This document shows positions 28,002 through 35,624 of a stretch of 39,132 bases of DNA, piece after piece. The notes below the pieces were generated by a model. That model saw only the letters and a program-made list of their open reading frames with translations. It did not search any database and was not told the DNA's origin. Origin of the DNA: an uncultured bacterium. GTDB taxonomy: Bacteria; Bacillota; Clostridia; Lachnospirales; Lachnospiraceae. The stretch covers positions 1 to 39,132 of the forward strand of contig CAMSTY010000032.1 of assembly GCA_947063875.1 (NCBI GenBank), written 5' to 3'. The stretch's first letter is position 1; every line of letters starts with the position of its first letter. Position numbers and translations under genes: made by a program.

Positions 28002-28067
28002 TAATTCCCAGGAGAGTTCTCAAAAACGGGAAGGATGGGAAGAGGCAGGGGGAGAGGAGGAGAAGTT

Positions 28068-28706
28068 ATGCCAACGGAACGGTTTAACCGGTTGCCTGAG
28101 GCAAAAAGGCAGGCGATACGAGAAGCGGCATTGAAGGAATTTGCCAGAGTGCCTTTTGACAAGGCGTCTATTAACCAGATTATCCGGAACGCAGACATTT
28201 CCCGGGGCAGTTTTTATACATATTTTGTAGATAAGCAGGATATGGTGGAGTTTTTGCTCAGGGACACGTTTGAAGAGATGCAACTGCTTTGTAAAGAGGA
28301 GCTGGATAGAAACGGCGGAGATTATTTTGCCATGGTGGAGGAGCTGTTTGAGTTTTTTACCAAAGAACTTCGCAAGAATCCGGATATGGTGAATATTGCC
28401 CGCAATATCTTCTCTAACAAAGAGAATAATGAACTGATAGGGATGCAGAACTGGCCCTGTCCGGACAATATGGCATCGCCCGGCAGTCCGGCCAGATGGA
28501 TGTACGAGCATCTGGACAGGGAACGTTTCCGCTTTGAGTCGGTGGAGGCTTTTTCGTCTTTGGCGATTCTGGCCATGTCGGCCCTGACAGTCGCTCTGAA
28601 GCAGTATTACGAATATCCACAGAAGCTGGAGAATATCCGTGAAATGTTTAAAAGATCGCTGGATATTTTAAAATACGGGGCATGCAAGACGCCGGAGAAA
28701 TCCTGA
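28068..28706 (+). CDS. TetR-family transcriptional regulator
   Basis: 212 residues from the ATG at 28068, with GGAGGAG about eight bases upstream; an in-frame ATG at 28035 would add a Gly/Arg-only segment made of the purine-rich leader and is rejected. The N-terminal helix-turn-helix (about 10-55: LPEAKRQAIREAALKEFARVPFDKASINQIIRNADISRGSFYTYFVDKQDM) is a classic TetR domain; the all-helical C-terminal part (about 60-200) is a ligand-binding domain of unrecognised specificity. It is the first gene after a consensus promoter overlapped by three identical palindromes, which points to autorepression and control of the efflux genes behind it. Confidence 0.92.
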   Translation: MPTERFNRLPEAKRQAIREAALKEFARVPFDKASINQIIRNADISRGSFYTYFVDKQDMVEFLLRDTFEEMQLLCKEELDRNGGDYFAMVEELFEFFTKELRKNPDMVNIARNIFSNKENNELIGMQNWPCPDNMASPGSPARWMYEHLDRERFRFESVEAFSSLAILAMSALTVALKQYYEYPQKLENIREMFKRSLDILKYGACKTPEKS

Positions 28707-28753: not shown

Positions 28754-29857
28754 ATGAATAAAGGAGTAATTATTGCAGGAATTGTCGTTGTGACACTGGG
28801 CGCTGCCGTGATTGTGCCTAGAGTCCTGAAGCCGAAGGCAGTACTGGAGGAAGCGCCCATACCGGTGGTAGAGGCAGAGGCGCCGAAGCCTGGGGACATT
28901 GTGCTGTATCGGAACCTGGTGGGTACGGTGGAGCCGTCGGATGTGGTCTACATATATCCCAAGGCGGCAGGTGAGATCCTGGATGTGTTTGTAAAGGCGG
29001 GAGACGTGGTTACGGAGGGGCAGGCAATCTGCAAGATTGACACCAAACAGGTGGATTCAGCCCGGCTTAGTATGGAAGCGGCAAGGACAGCCATGGATAA
29101 CGCCAACAGCAACCTCTCCAGGCAGCAGGCTCTCTTTGCGGCAGGCGATATTGCTTCGGCCGTTTATGAGCAGGCAGAGATGCAGGCGAAAAGCGCCCGC
29201 ATCCAGTATGACCAGGCGAAGCTGAATTATGATTATCAGATGGAATTCAGCAATATTACGGCCTCTATCAGCGGAGTAGTGGAACAGTGTGATGTGGAAG
29301 TCCATGACAATGTGGCGCAGCAGTCGTTGATCTGTGTGATCTCCGGCGAGGGCAGCAAAGCCATTACCTTTTCCGTGACAGAGAAAGTCGTGGACCAGAT
29401 GCAGGTGGGAGACAGGGTGACTATTGAGAAAAATGGAAAGGAATATCAGGGCAGCGTGACAGAGATCAGCAGTATGATTGATGCGGCCACCGGTTTGTTT
29501 AAGATCAAGGCTTCCGTGGAAGACGGGGACGCTCTGCCCACCGGCTCGGTAGTCAGCCTGTTTGTGGTTTCTGACCGGGCGGACCAGACCATGAGCATTC
29601 CTGTGGATGCGATCTACTATACGGGCGGGGATGCTTATGTGTATACCTATGATAACGGGACTGTCCACCATATTCCTGTGGAGGTGGGAATCTATGATTC
29701 CCAGAGAGCGCAGATCCTGTCCGGAATCGACGGGGATGACTTGGTGATCACTACATGGAGCTCGGAACTTCTGGAGGGAGCCAAGGTACGGCTGCCCGGA
29801 GAGGAATCCCCAAAAGATGATGGAAACCAGCAGACAGAGAGTGAACAGGCAGAGTAG
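28754..29857 (+). CDS. RND-type membrane fusion (adaptor) protein
   Basis: 367 residues. An N-terminal membrane anchor (about 5-22, VIIAGIVVVTLGAAVIV) leads to a first half of the lipoyl domain (YPKAAGEILDVFVKAGDVVTEGQAICKID, about 76-104), a helical hairpin (about 105-160, with NLSRQQALFAAGDIASAVYEQAEM at its tip), the second lipoyl half (NITASISGVVEQCDVEVHDNVAQQSLICVIS), a beta-barrel domain and a membrane-proximal domain ending ILSGIDGDDLVITTWSSELLEGAKV. In Gram-negatives this protein joins the RND pump to TolC. The hairpin tip segment AALFAAGDIAS resembles the R-L-S docking tip region only loosely. AGAGGAG precedes the ATG; the RND gene starts 14 bp later. Confidence 0.92.
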   Translation: MNKGVIIAGIVVVTLGAAVIVPRVLKPKAVLEEAPIPVVEAEAPKPGDIVLYRNLVGTVEPSDVVYIYPKAAGEILDVFVKAGDVVTEGQAICKIDTKQVDSARLSMEAARTAMDNANSNLSRQQALFAAGDIASAVYEQAEMQAKSARIQYDQAKLNYDYQMEFSNITASISGVVEQCDVEVHDNVAQQSLICVISGEGSKAITFSVTEKVVDQMQVGDRVTIEKNGKEYQGSVTEISSMIDAATGLFKIKASVEDGDALPTGSVVSLFVVSDRADQTMSIPVDAIYYTGGDAYVYTYDNGTVHHIPVEVGIYDSQRAQILSGIDGDDLVITTWSSELLEGAKVRLPGEESPKDDGNQQTESEQAE

Positions 29858-29871
29858 GAGGAGATGCAGCT

Positions 29872-32800
29872 ATGGGATTAACAAAATCAGTCCTCAAAAG
29901 GCCGGTCACGACAGTGCTGGTGATTCTGTGCCTGATTGTATTTGGCCTGCAGTCCGTGTTGTCGGCGAAGATGGAACTTATGCCTACCATGGATATGCCG
30001 ATGCTGATCATTGCTACCGTATATCCGGGAGCGAGCCCGGAGGATGTCAATGATCTGGTGACTACGGAGATTGAAGCTAATATTGGTTCTTTGAGCGGCG
30101 TGGACACGATTCAGTCCATGTCCATGGAAAATATGTCCATGGTGGTCATTCAGTATGATTACGGCAAGGACATTGATGAAGCTTATGATGATCTGAAGAA
30201 AAAGATGGATGTGCTGGAAGCCCAGCTTCCGGATGACTGCCAATCGCCAGTGGTGGTGGAACTGAACCTGGACGATATGGCGTCCGTGTATCTGTCGGTG
30301 AATCACAAGACGGAGCCGAACCTTTACAACTATGTGGACAACAAGGTGGTTCCGGAACTGGAAAAGATTACCACGGTCACGGATGTGGATGTGAGCGGCG
30401 GCCAGGAGGAATATATCAAGATTGAACTGATTCCGGAGAAGTTGCAGCAGTATCATCTGAATATGAATTCCATTTCCTCCGCCATCGGCGGGGCCAATTT
30501 TACATACCCGGCAGGAGATACGATAGTGGGCGGACAGCAGCTGTCCGTCAGCGCCGGAATCGAGTACGATACCATGGAACTGTTGAAAAAGATTCCGATT
30601 CCCCTGGGAAATGGAAATGTGATCTATCTTGAGGATGTGGCAAATGTCCGCAATTCCTTAAAGGATGCCACCGGTGTGGCGCGATATAATGGAAGAGATA
30701 CGATTTCCATCGGAGTGAAAAAGCAGCAGAGCGCCACAGCCATGGAGGTGTCAAGGGAGGTCAACCAGGTGATCAAAGCCTTGCAGGCTGCGGATGAAAA
30801 TCTGGAGATTGTGGTGGTCAATGATACCAGTGACTCCATCCAGTCCTCCTTAAAGAGCGTGATGCAGACCATGGCCATGGCTGTTTTGGTGTCCATGGTG
30901 ATCATATTCCTGTTCTTCGGAGAGATAAGGGCGTCCCTGATTGTAGGAACCTCCATCCCGATCTCGATTCTGGCGGCGTTGATCCTGATGCAGGCTCTGG
31001 GTTTTACCTTAAATGTAATCACCTTGAGCAGCCTGGTTCTGGGCGTCGGCATGATGGTGGATAACTCCATTGTGGTTCTGGAAAGCTGCTTTAGGTCCAC
31101 CAAAGGAAAGGGGATCGTGGGATACCGGGAGGCCGCCCTGGAGGGCAGTGCGGTAGTGCTTCAGTCCATTATCGGCGGTACGGCTACCACCTGTGTGGTA
31201 TTCCTGCCTCTGGCTCTTCTGGAAGGAATGACCGGGCAGATGTTCAAGCCTCTGGGCTTTACTATTATTTTCTGTCTGCTGGCTTCTTTGGTCAGCGCCA
31301 TGACCATAGTGCCCTTGTGTTATTGTGTGTTCCGGCCTCAGGAGAAGGACAGTTCCCCCGCGGGATGGATTCTTTCCAAAATGCAGGATGGGTACCGCAA
31401 AATGATGCAGGTGGTTCTTCCTAAGAAGATTACGGTTGTGGTTCTCTCGATCGCTATGCTGGGAGGCTCGATCTGGATGGCAACCCAGCTTCGTATGGAG
31501 TTGATGGTGGCAGATGACACCGGAACCATCAGCGTCAGCATTGATACCCGTCCAGGCCTTAAAGTGGATGAGACGGATAAGATTTTACGGCAGGTGGAGG
31601 CGATCGTGTCCCAGGACCCGGATCTGGAGTCCTACATGCTGACTTCCGGCGGCAGCGGCATGAGCATGGGCGGCACCGGAGCCACACTGACTGCCTACCT
31701 GCTGGATGACCGCAAGCGGGAGACAGACCAGGTTGTAAAAGAATGGAAACCCTTGCTGAACCAGATTGCAGGCGCTAATATATCAGTAGAGGCTTCTTCT
31801 TCCATGACCATGATGTCCTCTTCCGGCGGAGTGGAATATATCCTGCAAAGCACACAGTACGATGAGCTGAAAGAGGTTTCCGATCAGGTTGTAAATGAAC
31901 TTCTGGAATATGATGAGGTGACAAAGGTGCACAGCACCCTGGAAAATGCGGCGCCGGTTGTGAAACTGGATATTGATGCGGTGAAGGCGAATGCGGAAAA
32001 TATTACCCCGTTGCAGATTGCAGGTTCCGTCAGCAATATGTTAGGCGGAGTCGAGGCCACCACGTTGGAGGTAAACGGCGATGATATCAGTGTTATGGTG
32101 GAGTATCCGGATGATGAGTATGATACCATTGATAAGCTGAAGGGAATTGTTCTGACCAATAATGCGGGCGCTTCCGTGGCCCTGACAGACGTGGCAGATG
32201 TTGGTTTTAAGGACAGTCCGGCAACCATCAGACGGTCGGACCGGCAGTATCAGGTGACGATCACTGGCGATTTGCAGACTGACGACCCACGTCTGATTGA
32301 CGAGATCGAAAACAAACTTTATGACGAGGTGGTTTCAAAGTATATGAGTCCTACGCTCTCCCGGGCGGTCAACAGTATGGATGAAGCTATGGCCAGGGAG
32401 TTCGGCAACCTGTTTGGCGCTATCGGCACAGCGGTATTTCTGGTGTTTGTAGTTATGGCGGCCCAGTTTGAATCACCGAAATTCTCTATCATGGTGATGA
32501 CGACCATTCCTTTTGCTTTGATTGGTTCTTTCGGACTTTTGTATCTGACGGATGTGCCGATTAGTATGGCTTCCTTGCTGGGTTTTCTGATGCTTTCGGG
32601 GACGGTGGTGAATAATGGTATTCTCTACGTGGATACGGTGAACCAGTACCGGCAGGGGATGGATCTTCACACGGCACTGATTGAGGCGGGAGCCACCCGT
32701 CTGCGGCCGATTCTTATGACAACGCTGACTACGATCGTGGCTATGATTCCTATGGCTATGGCATATGGCGACAGCGGGAAGAGCATGCAGGGACTGGCCC

Positions 32801-32913
32801 TGGTGGATGTGGGTGGATTGGTTGCGTCCACGGTTTTGGCGTTGGTTATGCTGCCGGGGTATTATTTGTTGATGAGTGGGCGTAGGAAGAAAAAGGGGGT
32901 TAGCTATGATTGA
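29872..32913 (+). CDS. RND-superfamily efflux permease (HAE1-like)
   Basis: 1013 residues, close to AcrB length, with the duplicated RND layout: TM1 near 12-30, a large extracytoplasmic domain (about 40-325), TM2-7 (about 330-530), a second large domain (about 545-835), and TM8-12 (about 845-1005). Family segments: TVYPGASPEDVNDLVTTEIE, GVGMMVDNSIVVLESC in TM4 and LSGTVVNNGILYVDTVNQYRQ in TM10. Compared with AcrB, Asp407 is kept (D397), Asp408 is Asn (N398), and Lys940 is Asn (N914). The pump exports small molecules using an ion gradient; the altered relay may mean a different coupling. It forms one unit with the adaptor gene; the TolC-like genes follow after a 305-bp gap with unusual structure. 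Confidence 0.94.
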   Translation: MGLTKSVLKRPVTTVLVILCLIVFGLQSVLSAKMELMPTMDMPMLIIATVYPGASPEDVNDLVTTEIEANIGSLSGVDTIQSMSMENMSMVVIQYDYGKDIDEAYDDLKKKMDVLEAQLPDDCQSPVVVELNLDDMASVYLSVNHKTEPNLYNYVDNKVVPELEKITTVTDVDVSGGQEEYIKIELIPEKLQQYHLNMNSISSAIGGANFTYPAGDTIVGGQQLSVSAGIEYDTMELLKKIPIPLGNGNVIYLEDVANVRNSLKDATGVARYNGRDTISIGVKKQQSATAMEVSREVNQVIKALQAADENLEIVVVNDTSDSIQSSLKSVMQTMAMAVLVSMVIIFLFFGEIRASLIVGTSIPISILAALILMQALGFTLNVITLSSLVLGVGMMVDNSIVVLESCFRSTKGKGIVGYREAALEGSAVVLQSIIGGTATTCVVFLPLALLEGMTGQMFKPLGFTIIFCLLASLVSAMTIVPLCYCVFRPQEKDSSPAGWILSKMQDGYRKMMQVVLPKKITVVVLSIAMLGGSIWMATQLRMELMVADDTGTISVSIDTRPGLKVDETDKILRQVEAIVSQDPDLESYMLTSGGSGMSMGGTGATLTAYLLDDRKRETDQVVKEWKPLLNQIAGANISVEASSSMTMMSSSGGVEYILQSTQYDELKEVSDQVVNELLEYDEVTKVHSTLENAAPVVKLDIDAVKANAENITPLQIAGSVSNMLGGVEATTLEVNGDDISVMVEYPDDEYDTIDKLKGIVLTNNAGASVALTDVADVGFKDSPATIRRSDRQYQVTITGDLQTDDPRLIDEIENKLYDEVVSKYMSPTLSRAVNSMDEAMAREFGNLFGAIGTAVFLVFVVMAAQFESPKFSIMVMTTIPFALIGSFGLLYLTDVPISMASLLGFLMLSGTVVNNGILYVDTVNQYRQGMDLHTALIEAGATRLRPILMTTLTTIVAMIPMAMAYGDSGKSMQGLALVDVGGLVASTVLALVMLPGYYLLMSGRRKKKGVSYD

Positions 32914-32935
32914 GGAAGGTTCCTGGCGGGGGTCC

Positions 32936-33031
32936 GCGGCTGAGGGATAAGAGAACACCTTCAGACGCGCTCTCGCTCGGAGTGCCGACGTGGCCCCGCG
33001 GTCTTCAGGCGTTCTCTTATCCCTCAGCTGC
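32936..33031. repeat. 96-bp three-tier hairpin element between RND and TolC-like genes
   Basis: Outer arms 32936-32956 and 33011-33031 pair at 20 of 21 positions. Inside, CCT (32958-32960) pairs with AGG (33007-33009), then AGAC-GCG (32963-32969) with CGC-G-GTCT (32997-33004), and the centre holds TCGG-AGTG-CCGA. The whole is far more GC-rich than its surroundings and starts 22 bp after the RND stop. No T tract follows, so it is not a normal terminator; a repeated mobile hairpin is one possibility. Confidence 0.85.
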
Positions 33032-33138
33032 TGCGTCCCTGGCTTGCTCTAAGGATGTAAGGGCGCAATAGGAGTAGAGGGTTTAATAAAGTAAAGGGGG
33101 TAATGAGAACAGAGGGTATAAGGATAAAGGGAAAGGCA

Positions 33139-33171
33139 GGGGGGGGGGGCTGTAATAGGGGCGGGATGGGG
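33139..33171 (+). promoter_or_regulatory. G11 tract in a G-quadruplex-type motif
   Basis: Eleven consecutive G (33139-33149), then GGGG, GGG and GGGG separated by 8, 1 and 2 bases, satisfying the pattern for a four-stranded G structure on the mRNA-like strand, about 48 bp before the first TolC-like gene. No clear sigma-A promoter is visible in the 33032-33218 stretch, which is otherwise purine-rich. Confidence 0.7.
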
Positions 33172-33218
33172 TTGGTGCATGGATGGCGGCTGGGGAATAG
33201 AAAGGAATGTGAGGCGGA

Positions 33219-34388
33219 ATGAGAGTCGGGAAGTATATTGTTGTGTGTGGTATGGTTCTGGCGGTGGCCGGTGCTGTGCCGGTGGCGGCGTATGGTGCTA
33301 ATCCGGAGTTTGCGCGGTCGGAGGGGGAATGGGCTAGGCTGAGGGATGATGTGCTAGAGTATGATGAGATTGAGGGGTTGATTGCGGAGTATAATGCTAC
33401 GGTGCAGACGAATCAATTGGATTTGAATGAGTTTAAGAAGAAGTATGGCAATACTAAGGAGGATGTATCGGCGAAGTATCGGGATATGGCGAATGAGATT
33501 TATGCTAGTGTGGAATATCCGGATGCGGATGAGCCGACTTATGGTTATGTGGTGGCTTCTGTATTGATGGCGGAGGTTCAGGCGAAGAACCTGGAGCAGC
33601 AGGCGGATGATAACCTGGAAGACAGTGAGATTATTTATCTGAATTATAAGCAGGCGGAGAAGACGCTGGTGACAGTGGCGCAGAGTAATATGGTGAATTA
33701 TGCCAAAGGCTTGCTGCAGCTGCAGCAGGCGGAGCTGGCATTGAGGCAGGCACAGACAGCGATGGCAACGGCTGATGTCCGCCGTGCCAATGGATTGGCA
33801 ACCCAAGTGGATGTGCTCAATGCTCAGGAGGCACGGATGACGGCAAACCGCAACCTGGATTCTGCCCGGTCGGCGATTGAGAATGTCCGTCAGAAATTGC
33901 TGGTTATGCTGGGATGGAAGTATGATGCCCAGCCTGAGATCCGGGATATTCCGAGAGCAGACAAAAACCGGATTGCCGGGATGAATCCTCAGGAGGATAA
34001 AGCGGCGGCGATAGAAAATAATTATGCTCTGAAGGTCAATAAGAAGAAGCTTGCCAATGCTGACAGTCCGAATACCATAGAGAGCCTTACCAAAACGATT
34101 GCTGATAATGAGCAGAAGATCGGTTCGTCTCTGGTGACGAATTATCAGAATGTATTGACAGCGCAGCTGGCTTATGATCAGGCGGTGGCAGAGTTGGAAT
34201 TGGAAAACAGGAATCTGCATTCTCTGGAGATTAATTTCCAGCAGGGGAATGCCAGTCGGACGGAACTGGAAAATCAGCAATATGCGGTACAGAACAAACA
34301 GCTTGCCTTGCAGATTGCCGATATGAATCTGTTTCAGGCTATGGAGACTTATGACTGGGCAGTGAATGGACTTGCGAGTGTTTCGTAG
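33219..34388 (+). CDS. TolC/OEP-family-like secreted helical protein 1
   Basis: 389 residues. A signal peptide (about 1-26, GMVLAVAGAVPVAAYGA) without lipobox. The body has the two-fold repeat of outer-membrane efflux proteins: YDEIEGLIAEYNATV near the start, the long helix with RRANGLATQVDVLNAQEARMTANRNLDSARSAIENVRQKLLVMLGW (about 188-235), and in the second half FQQGNASRTELENQQYAVQNKQLALQIADMNLFQAMETYDW (about 345-385). In TolC each half also has two beta strands of the membrane barrel; here the matching places (about 90-110, YPDADEPTYGY, and about 285-300, NADSPNTIES) are short linkers. It follows an RND pump and adaptor in a probable monoderm. Ribosome site GAGGCGGA is weak. Confidence 0.8.
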   Translation: MRVGKYIVVCGMVLAVAGAVPVAAYGANPEFARSEGEWARLRDDVLEYDEIEGLIAEYNATVQTNQLDLNEFKKKYGNTKEDVSAKYRDMANEIYASVEYPDADEPTYGYVVASVLMAEVQAKNLEQQADDNLEDSEIIYLNYKQAEKTLVTVAQSNMVNYAKGLLQLQQAELALRQAQTAMATADVRRANGLATQVDVLNAQEARMTANRNLDSARSAIENVRQKLLVMLGWKYDAQPEIRDIPRADKNRIAGMNPQEDKAAAIENNYALKVNKKKLANADSPNTIESLTKTIADNEQKIGSSLVTNYQNVLTAQLAYDQAVAELELENRNLHSLEINFQQGNASRTELENQQYAVQNKQLALQIADMNLFQAMETYDWAVNGLASVS

Positions 34389-34403
34389 TCAGGAGGAAAC
34401 GAG

Positions 34404-35624
34404 ATGGGCAGGAATCAGGAATGGATGAACCCGGGCGTGATGCGGATTTCCAAGGCGGCAATGGTTCTGGCAGCTGTTTTGGCGGTCGGAGTATGTCCGG
34501 CGCAGGCAGCGCCGACCGGGCCGGGGGCGCCTCCCGAGGCAGAACGTTATGACGCGGCGACCTTGGCCAGATTGCAGGATAACCGGATTGAATATGATGA
34601 GATCCCGGATTTGGTTCATGAATATAATCCGGATATTTCTAAGGCGTGGGATACGTATCAGAACAGTAAGGAAGATTATGCCGGCATTGTGACGGAACTG
34701 GAGAGTCAGTATCCTGCTGTGAAGGAGACGGCTGACGGGTATATCTCGGCTGGCCGCCTGACGGGAAGCAAGCTGCTGACCTCAACCGGGCATCAATTGG
34801 ATAGGGGATTTCAGGGTGTGATTCAGGGAATGCGGGATACGGTCAACGGCTGGGATACCAATCAGCGAAATACGAGTGCGCTGCGGAGGGCAGAACGCCA
34901 GGTGACAGCCGGAACGCAGAGCGCGATGATCGGCTACGAAACGATCCGGCAAAACATAGCTACCCTGGAGACCATGGTGCTGCTTTATGAACAACAGGCG
35001 GATATGACGAACCGGATGGCGGCGTTGGGGATGGCTACTGGGACAGACCTGGCAGGGGCTAACAGCAGCTTGCTTGCCGCGCGTTCCCAGCTTGCCGCTC
35101 TCAGCAGCCAGCAGGAGAGCGTGAGAAGGACGCTGTGCATGCTGCTTGGATATGATCCGGATTCCAATCCGGAGATTTGCCCGATTCCGGAGTTTGATAT
35201 GAGCAGGCTGGAAGGGATGAATCTGGAACAGGATACCATAAAGGCGATTGGCAATAACCAGACCTTGATTGCACAGCGGACTTCCGCAAAAGGGAATACC
35301 AATGATCAGGTAGCGGCGAGAAGCCGGATGATCGAGGAAGGAGACCAGAAGCTCACGATTGAGATGCAGCGGCTCTATCAGGATGTGCAGGATAAGAAGG
35401 CCGCTTATGAGGCGGCGCAAACGGGATTTGAGGCGGCAAAACTCAGCCATCAGGCGGCAGAGAGGCAATATCAGCTGGGGTTGCTGTCCCAGACGCAGTA
35501 TATCGGGACGCAGATTTCCTATTATCAGAAGAAGGCAGAGAAGGAGTCTGCGAATCTGAGCCTTCTGCAGGCGATGGAGACGTATGACTGGGGCGTGCTG
35601 GGGTTTGCGACGGTCAGCGACTGA
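34404..35624 (+). CDS. TolC/OEP-family-like secreted helical protein 2 (paralogue)
   Basis: 406 residues starting 15 bp after its paralogue, with AGGAGG seven bases before the ATG. Signal peptide about 1-36 (KAAMVLAAVLAVGVCPAQAA), no lipobox. It shares with protein 1 the opening EYDEIPDLVHEYNPDIS, the mid-helix MAALGMATGTDLAGANSSLLAARSQLAALSSQQESVRRTLCMLLGY (about 210-255), and the ending LLQAMETYDWGVLGFATVS. The second-half helix has YQLGLLSQTQYIGTQISYYQKKAE. As in protein 1, the beta-barrel positions (about 95-120 and 300-315, AKGNTNDQVAARS) are short and polar. TolC works as a trimer of such two-fold repeats; two different paralogues could mix or serve different roles. It converges with spoIIR, 20 bp away, with no obvious terminator between. 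Confidence 0.8.
   Translation: MGRNQEWMNPGVMRISKAAMVLAAVLAVGVCPAQAAPTGPGAPPEAERYDAATLARLQDNRIEYDEIPDLVHEYNPDISKAWDTYQNSKEDYAGIVTELESQYPAVKETADGYISAGRLTGSKLLTSTGHQLDRGFQGVIQGMRDTVNGWDTNQRNTSALRRAERQVTAGTQSAMIGYETIRQNIATLETMVLLYEQQADMTNRMAALGMATGTDLAGANSSLLAARSQLAALSSQQESVRRTLCMLLGYDPDSNPEICPIPEFDMSRLEGMNLEQDTIKAIGNNQTLIAQRTSAKGNTNDQVAARSRMIEEGDQKLTIEMQRLYQDVQDKKAAYEAAQTGFEAAKLSHQAAERQYQLGLLSQTQYIGTQISYYQKKAEKESANLSLLQAMETYDWGVLGFATVSD

What the first reader, a model, noticed from the sequence alone, without database searches (positions are those of the whole stretch)
33219..35624. Two tandem TolC-like proteins, apparently without beta-barrel strands, beside an RND pump in a monoderm
Seen: two paralogous secreted proteins with both halves of the OEP/TolC helical repeat (R.xGxxTxxDVLxAQ-type helices; a shared YDEI start and QAMETYDW ending) directly behind a membrane-fusion protein and an RND permease. 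Where TolC carries its outer-membrane strands, both have only short polar linkers. Known: TolC spans an outer membrane and docks to the adaptor. Everything else in the window (SpoIIR, RNase Y, sigma-A and sigma-G promoters, class III FBPase) indicates a Gram-positive spore-former. Inference: a barrel-less helical tunnel may carry the pump's exit channel through the thick peptidoglycan, or the proteins may form a hetero-oligomer. This would be an efflux architecture that I do not know to be described.
Basis: partly seen in the sequence, partly recalled or inferred. Interest (0 to 1): 0.88.

Follow-up and report, generated by a model that had tools for sequence, protein, structure and literature searches.

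The report
Paired wall-type TolC exit ducts
A bacterium predicted to have a single membrane carries an export-pump gene set whose exit-tube proteins lack the usual outer-membrane anchor and come as two different partners that stay side by side in almost every relative examined, hinting at an export duct through the cell wall.

Summary
Window 33219-34388 (A) and 34404-35624 (B) are OEP/TolC-type proteins (Pfam PF02321 over cut-off) behind a TetR, an adaptor (MFP) and an RND permease. AlphaFold2 models (mean pLDDT 89.3, 88.1) are helical with no barrel strands; the 44 best PDB matches of each are outer-membrane factors. No Omp85 or LpxC was found in the genome.

Part of the idea is in print: TolC-like proteins with a beta-barrel omission in monoderm Firmicutes pump operons (Stubenrauch 2022, PMC8809574), one operon with two.

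What I did not find in print is that the pair is a rule. In 75 of 77 named loci a second OEP directly follows; the other two run into N or a contig end. A tree splits them into two old clades, alpha and beta; 34 of 35 pairs have one of each, swapped-order and pump-less pairs included. Alpha and beta co-vary (partial r 0.62) almost as adaptor and permease do (0.75); partial correlations with the pump are at most 0.17. OEP-linked adaptors have short AcrA-size hairpins; 17 of 20 without a neighbouring OEP have long ones.

Best reading: alpha and beta jointly form a barrel-less exit duct into the wall. Stoichiometry, duct and location are inferred. New variant of a known kind.

The parts
28035..28706 (+). 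TetR-family regulator, first gene of the cluster
   Evidence: TetR_N 41.1 bits and TetR_C_19 47.1 bits, both over cut-off
28754..29857 (+). Membrane-fusion (adaptor) protein with a short AcrA-size alpha-hairpin
   Evidence: TIGR01730 177.2 bits over cut-off 94.9; 79-residue hairpin segment
29872..32913 (+). RND permease, 1013 aa
   Evidence: ACR_tran PF00873 678.9 bits over residues 5-1001
32936..33031 (.). Inverted repeat in the 305-bp gap between permease and OEP-alpha; nature unknown (mobile or terminator-like), not needed for the claim
   Evidence: 31-nt arms, 87% complementary, 34 nt apart; partial copies, 71-82% identical, on C10 and C40 of the same genome
33219..34388 (+). OEP-alpha: barrel-less TolC-type protein with a signal peptide (by eye), 389 aa
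   Evidence: PF02321 25.4 bits; AlphaFold2 pLDDT 89.3, pTM 0.82, no strand of 3 or more residues; Foldseek's 44 best PDB hits are outer-membrane factors; alpha clade
34404..35624 (+). OEP-beta: second barrel-less TolC-type protein with a signal peptide (by eye), 406 aa
   Evidence: PF02321 55.6 bits; AlphaFold2 pLDDT 88.1, pTM 0.77, no strand of 3 or more residues; Foldseek's 44 best PDB hits are outer-membrane factors; beta clade

Best explanation
The cluster encodes an HAE-1-like RND efflux pump of a single-membrane bacterium related to Lachnospiraceae. The permease takes up substrate and passes it into the adaptor ring, whose short hairpins dock tip to tip on a TolC-type helical duct. That duct has no outer-membrane beta-barrel and is made from two obligate, anciently duplicated subunits, alpha (33219-34388) and beta (34404-35624). 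It carries substrate away from the membrane into or through the cell wall (peptidoglycan and S-layer). Shown by computation: OEP membership, helical OEP fold, absence of strands in the models, no match to Omp85 or LpxC, near-constant pairing, separate alpha and beta clades, alpha-beta covariation. Inferred: that alpha and beta touch, that they share one mixed ring (more likely) or stack end to end (less likely), that the complex forms a conduit, where it sits, and what it exports.
For: Fold. Lost strands: helix lists; tip-to-tip spacing 149-151 in 76 alpha rows and 139-157 in 75 beta rows against 218 in TolC. No OM machinery found. Pairing: 29 of 29 loci with both MFP and RND in the fetched family set have two OEP genes, the first in pieces in L046 and L047; in 75 of 77 named loci a second OEP directly follows the first, in L096 the second gene begins but runs into N, and L146 ends with its contig. 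Two old clades: split supported 100/99, 34 of 35 pairs with one member on each side, gene order swapped in one group; with outgroups the alpha+beta clade is 100/99, beta 94/74, alpha only 66/26. Pairs stay together with no adaptor or permease in the fetched stretch: L058, L062, L064, L072, in the tree, and L116 and L132; and beside genes that look like MacAB-type ABC genes by eye: L071, L102. Covariation: partial r alpha-beta 0.62 (5-95% bootstrap range 0.53-0.68), MFP-RND 0.75, the four cross terms between -0.08 and 0.17; 58 of 89 loci after removing near-duplicates. Adaptor type: 94 of 94 adaptors examined at OEP-linked RND loci have a 79-80 residue hairpin segment; 17 of 20 at loci without a neighbouring OEP have 178-303 residues, and the 3 exceptions come from genomes that carry OEP pairs elsewhere.
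Against: No complex was modelled: only single chains could be folded, so oligomer, stoichiometry and duct are unproved. Adaptor-facing tip motifs are not outstandingly conserved (alpha repeat 2 is more variable than about 80% of equal windows; the best, beta repeat 2, is only in the most conserved 14%), and a strict pattern of the adaptor docking motif fails in 17 of 97 short-hairpin adaptors. Alpha alone is weakly supported as a clade (66/26), and one pair (L060) has both members on the alpha side. Plain (not partial) correlations of alpha and beta with adaptor and permease are 0.40-0.55, as shared ancestry would give, and the alpha-beta signal can come from the two genes moving together as a unit; that the permease, also adjacent, shows no partial correlation with alpha argues against mere adjacency but does not exclude it. 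In other clostridial families 8 of 20 fetched loci show a single OEP with an RND pump (L188-L190, L193, L194, L203, L204, L206), and two Lachnospiraceae-family loci have a single OEP (L056, L073), so one subunit can suffice in relatives. 5 of 28 genomes with a pair have no SLH match.
Confidence: 0.62

Rival explanations
1. Alpha and beta form two separate homotrimers that are alternative ducts for the same pump, for example for different wall states or substrates.
For: Each protein has both OEP repeats and could trimerise alone, as TolC does; single-OEP pumps exist in other Clostridia (8 of 20 loci).
Against: Alternatives are normally lost or moved apart over time; here the second gene is next to the first in 75 of 77 named loci, with the other two not readable, and also in pump-less pairs, and the two covary strongly.
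Confidence: 0.2
2. The two channels stack end to end, one docked to the adaptor and the other as its extension, to reach through a thick wall.
For: With the barrel gone the distal end is free; both keep long helices of 54-58 residues; a wall is thicker than one TolC body (general knowledge).
Against: No test of end-to-end contact was possible; the helical insert at the distal end is among the least conserved parts of beta and of average conservation in alpha, which is not what a docking face would show.
Confidence: 0.13
3. The proteins are not ducts: they are coiled-coil cell-wall or S-layer proteins that reuse the OEP fold, co-regulated with a pump.
For: Genomes with a pair are rich in SLH proteins (23 of 28 against 51 of 271; relatedness of the genomes not controlled); a C. 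difficile TolC-like protein is reported in the secretome with S-layer proteins (PMC8809574, section 8 read).
Against: Consistent neighbourhood with adaptor and RND genes, and AcrA-size adaptors where an OEP is present.
Confidence: 0.1
4. The pair is recent redundancy or an assembly artefact without function.
For: Tandem duplicates are common in bacteria.
Against: Many separate assemblies, deep divergence (window A and B 29% identical), mostly intact frames, and two separated clades.
Confidence: 0.02

Closest known systems
TolC-like proteins of monoderm Firmicutes (Stubenrauch et al. 2022, PLoS Biol, PMC8809574)
   Same: OEP repeats, signal peptide, operons with adaptor and pump, an omission in the beta-barrel of the modelled C. 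difficile homologue, no BAM; proposed S-layer location. One L. gingivalis operon is noted as having two putative TolC-like proteins; if that is Lachnoanaerobaculum gingivalis, a locus of the species is L129 here.
   Different: The passages read treat the protein as one component. They do not report two conserved clades, a pairing rule, swapped gene order, pump-less pairs, alpha-beta covariation, or the short-against-long adaptor contrast; 'tandem' and 'hetero' occur 0 times in the main text. Figures and supplementary files were not seen.
Outer-membrane factors of Gram-negative tripartite pumps (TolC, OprM, CmeC, CusC)
   Same: Two OEP repeats, long helical body, tip motif, adaptor and RND partner; the 44 best PDB matches of each model.
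   Different: No beta-strands in the models, no OM marker found in the genome, second repeat shortened (tip-to-tip 151 or 150 against 218 residues), two co-conserved subunits in place of one.
OEP-less MacAB-like pump Spr0693-0694-0695 of Streptococcus pneumoniae (PMC5768738; abstract and 12 of 17 passages seen)
   Same: A pump plus adaptor in a Gram-positive; the adaptor alone forms a nanotube proposed to lead substrate to the peptidoglycan.
   Different: ABC type and no OEP. In this window a short adaptor is combined with two OEP-type proteins.
HAE-1 RND multidrug permeases (AcrB, MdtB, MexB)
   Same: Full-length ACR_tran match.
   Different: Below the cut-off of every NCBIfam model shown (25 of 27; 610.7 against 1250 bits for the best), so no named drug-pump subfamily applies.

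Membership tests
Outer membrane factor (TolC/OEP) family | Pfam OEP profile over the curated cut-off | tested here: met
   25.4 and 55.6 bits against 22; 74 of 76 alpha rows and 73 of 75 beta rows match at E 1e-3
Outer membrane factor (TolC/OEP) family | Two OEP repeats making a long helical body | tested here: met
   AlphaFold2 helix pattern and Foldseek matches to TolC and OprM
Outer membrane factor (TolC/OEP) family | Beta-strands that form an outer-membrane barrel | tested here: not met
   No strand of 3 or more residues; tip-to-tip distance 67-68 residues shorter than in TolC
Outer membrane factor (TolC/OEP) family | Residence in an outer membrane | tested here: not met
   No Omp85 and no LpxC match in the 92%-complete genome; LptD not searched; localisation itself not testable
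Outer membrane factor (TolC/OEP) family | Homotrimer docked to an adaptor hexamer | not testable with these tools
   Only single chains could be folded
Tripartite RND efflux system | Linked genes for permease, adaptor and exit duct | tested here: met
   Window genes 28754-35624; the same order in 62 of 77 named loci
Tripartite RND efflux system | AcrA-type short hairpin with the R-L-S docking motif | tested here: inconclusive
   Size met in 94 of 94 OEP-linked adaptors examined; a strict motif pattern in 80 of 97 short-hairpin adaptors. The motif definition is recalled
Monoderm Firmicutes TolC-like proteins (PMC8809574) | S-layer or SLH proteins in the same genome | tested here: inconclusive
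   Own genome has 2 SLH matches; 23 of 28 pair genomes positive, 5 negative

The most novel reading that the evidence does not exclude
A TolC-type exit duct built from two different, co-dependent subunits that has lost its membrane barrel and works as a wall conduit: a two-subunit, outer-membrane-free class of tripartite (here four-component) pump, recurrent in Lachnospiraceae and with a possible second, separate origin in other Clostridia (L195, L197-L202).
Probability: 0.48. Interest if true: 0.82.

Novelty: new variant of a known kind. Interest (0 to 1): 0.64.

Why it matters
How single-membrane bacteria move pump substrates past a thick wall is open. A near-constant two-subunit duct without a barrel gives a concrete, testable candidate, separates the conduit role of TolC from its membrane anchor, and would be the first hetero-oligomeric outer-membrane-factor-type channel known to me (from memory, not from a search). 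The contrast between short adaptors with OEP pairs and long adaptors without a neighbouring OEP suggests two evolutionary answers to the same wall-crossing problem in one bacterial family. It also means that an OEP or TolC annotation in a gut Firmicute need not be a sign of contamination or of an outer membrane.

Tried and rejected
Recent duplication or artefact: rejected by two deep clades across many genomes. Natural alpha-beta fusion: the one apparent candidate (1467-aa frame in L096) is a run of N in the assembly. OEP proteins with an extra part (about 720 aa, L063): seen, but the family search for them failed on one bad reference and was not repeated. S-layer as the only home: association found (23 of 28 against 51 of 271), but 5 pair genomes lack SLH matches and genome relatedness was not controlled; C. 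difficile-type CW_binding_2 has no match in the own genome and is present in only 3 of 299 family genomes. Tip conservation as proof of docking: not supportive enough. Profile alignment to TolC to map the lost strands: only the first tip region aligned, 95 columns for alpha and 57 for beta, so spacing was counted instead. VIA-align was not available. Paper searches on the theme; no paper on a conserved TolC pair was seen in those listings (searches showed 10 of 15 and 10 of 99 papers). The library holds open-licence papers only. Of PMC5007114 I saw two passages; it does not contain the word TolC in its main text.

Choices that bear on counts: the 42 loci are the window, its sister locus and 40 stretches picked by hand from the OEP matches, so 'RND with OEP' is selected there, while 'two rather than one' is not. 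L055, L057, L059, L063 and L077 gave no full-score OEP and are not in the tree. The adaptors of loci with only a partial adaptor frame (for example L098, L152) were not counted. The 20 OEP-less RND loci are 20 of at least 24 in a capped list; L159 ends 203 bp after its permease, so its neighbour cannot be seen, though its genome has no OEP match. Of the 17 genomes with long adaptors, 16 have no OEP match and one (G023) has a match below the cut-off. In one search, 22 rows (11 pairs) were left out to save time, and the alpha and beta labels came. Alignments A3 and A4 leave out L096 and L153; A4 also lacks L146. The 28 pair genomes are those in which I fetched a pair; the other 271 may hold some that I did not fetch.
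Full report
WHAT IS THERE. The window holds a cluster on the + strand: TetR regulator (28035-28706), adaptor (28754-29857), RND permease (29872-32913), then two OEP proteins, A (33219-34388, 389 aa) and B (34404-35624, 406 aa). Pfam and NCBIfam support each part. A and B both pass the OEP cut-off and are 29% identical to each other. By eye both start with Sec-type signal peptides; a lipobox-like pattern occurs in only 2 of 76 alpha and 2 of 75 beta rows, so no lipid anchor is likely. SpoIIR (minus strand), D-Ala-D-Ala ligase and a glutamate-racemase-like protein lie just downstream. The genome (3.49 Mb, 92% complete) has a second MFP-RND-OEP-OEP cluster on contig C57 and no match to Omp85 or LpxC, so an outer membrane is unlikely.

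STRUCTURE. With alignments of 76 alpha and 75 beta sequences, AlphaFold2 gave mean pLDDT 89.3 and 88.1. Both models are helical, with no strand of 3 or more residues. In repeat 1 the place of TolC's strands is taken by helices (alpha 80-97 and 108-131; beta 76-120 and 123-152); in repeat 2 it is a tight turn (alpha 281-283, beta 294-299). The two tip motifs lie 151 (alpha median) and 150 (beta median) residues apart against 218 in E. coli TolC. Foldseek nevertheless puts outer-membrane factors in the first 44 places of the PDB for both models, best E 1.1e-6 and 2.1e-6, TM-scores mostly 0.4-0.6 with large rmsd, so the fold is the OEP fold but the fit is loose. The titles of a few of these rows (5azo, 5azp, 5azs, 5ng5, 9tg4) do not name the chain; I take them as OprN, OprJ or TolC from memory and from their lengths. 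By sequence alone only one weak PDB match appears, VceC at E 0.17, for A.

THE PAIR IS A RULE. In 299 genomes of the family, OEP matches occur in 54 (48 over cut-off). I fetched 40 of those stretches plus the sister locus. All 29 loci with both MFP and RND have two OEP genes behind them; the first is in pieces in L046 and L047. Two loci have a single OEP (L056, L073) and no RND. An alpha-profile scan of named genomes kept 77 loci, with titles such as Lachnospiraceae, Clostridiales, Hungatella, Lacrimispora, Lachnoanaerobaculum and Enterocloster; four loci come from MAG records titled Paenibacillaceae. In 75 of 77 a second OEP directly follows the first. In L096 the second gene begins and runs into N, with another alpha-beta pair beyond it; L146 ends with its contig. 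The exact order MFP-RND-OEP-OEP is seen in 62. The two sets overlap.

TWO OLD SUBUNITS. A maximum-likelihood tree of 72 OEPs (35 pairs, 2 singles) has one 100/99 split. One side (alpha) holds the first gene of 24 loci and the second gene of a swapped-order group; the other (beta) holds their partners. 34 of 35 pairs have one member on each side; in L060 both fall on the alpha side, the first at a short basal branch. With outgroups from other clostridial families (24 pairs kept, labels), alpha+beta form a 100/99 clade, beta 94/74, alpha only 66/26, and L060 then splits like the swapped group. Single-OEP RND systems (L188-L190) branch just outside. A second tandem-pair lineage (L195, L197-L202) sits apart, which suggests a separate duplication; L195 lies beside genes that look MacAB-like by eye. 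In that set of 20 loci from other families, 8 show a single OEP with an RND pump.

THE PAIR IS A MODULE. Pairs also sit beside ABC-type genes in L071 and L102 (by eye). Distance-matrix covariation over 58 of 89 loci gives partial r 0.62 for alpha-beta and 0.75 for MFP-RND, while alpha-MFP, beta-MFP, alpha-RND and beta-RND are 0.15, 0.10, -0.08 and 0.17; the plain correlations of these four are 0.47, 0.55, 0.40 and 0.53. The permease lies next to the first OEP yet has no partial correlation with alpha, so adjacency alone does not explain the result.

ADAPTOR CONTRAST. RND permeases are commoner than OEPs: PF00873 in 247 of 299 family genomes, 172 over cut-off. I took 20 loci with a permease of about 1000-1040 aa and no Pfam OEP match beside it; none shows an OEP by my own profiles, with L159 uninformative because its contig ends 203 bp after the permease. 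Their adaptors differ: 17 of 20 carry a 178-303 residue, coiled-coil-looking segment, while all 94 examined at OEP-linked RND loci have 79-80 residues. The three short exceptions (L172, L173, L174) come from genomes G119, G228 and G033, which have OEP pairs elsewhere. I infer that a long adaptor replaces the duct and that a short one needs it, in cis or in trans.

WALL OR S-LAYER. SLH proteins occur in 74 of 299 family genomes; among the 28 genomes with a fetched pair 23 are positive, against 51 of 271 others (Fisher odds ratio 19.8, p 2e-11). Relatedness is not controlled, and G114, G178, G185, G244 and G269 are exceptions. The association fits the published S-layer idea (PMC8809574) but does not make an SLH protein a requirement.

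MECHANISM. Most likely the permease and the adaptor ring feed a helical duct to which both alpha and beta contribute, and the duct ends in the wall. A mixed ring is preferred because both proteins keep a recognisable first-repeat tip motif, though tip conservation is not strong. Stacked or alternative homotrimers remain possible. Substrate is unknown; the TetR regulator and permease class suggest toxic small molecules (inference).

NOVELTY. TolC-like proteins with a barrel omission in monoderm pump operons are known (PMC8809574: section 8 and passages read, figures not held). The long review PMC8277102 (12 of 21 passages shown, from the first 300,000 of 747,799 characters) showed nothing of this kind. 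No paper on a conserved two-subunit OEP duct was seen in nine searches of an open-licence library. I therefore file it as a new variant of a known kind.

Noticed in passing
L155-L171: OEP-less RND pumps of the family have adaptors with very long, coiled-coil-looking segments (178-303 residues), perhaps self-sufficient wall conduits.
   Followed up: partly
e.g. G155:C11, G265:C1, G145:C8: A frequent class of RND permeases in the family lies in frames of about 1250-1400 aa whose best match to ACR_tran starts only near position 198, which suggests a large insertion or a diverged N-terminal porter region.
   Followed up: no
L063:6109-8271 and similar frames of about 690-720 aa: A longer OEP-like protein with an extra C-terminal part, between genes of unknown function; weak OEP profile score.
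   Followed up: no
L195, L197-L202: A second tandem OEP pair type in other clostridial families, in L195 with MacAB-like genes (by eye); looks like a separate duplication.
   Followed up: partly
window 32936-33031: Inverted repeat with 31-nt arms between permease and OEP-alpha; partial copies, 71-82% identical, on contigs C10 and C40 of the same genome.
   Followed up: partly
G000:C57 (L037): The same genome carries a second full MFP-RND-OEP-OEP cluster.
   Followed up: yes
L077 (G129) and L009 (G287): Much stronger OEP matches (E 1.1e-29 and 1.6e-21) on contigs of 33.5 and 4.7 kb; possibly contaminating Gram-negative DNA in these assemblies (a guess).
   Followed up: no
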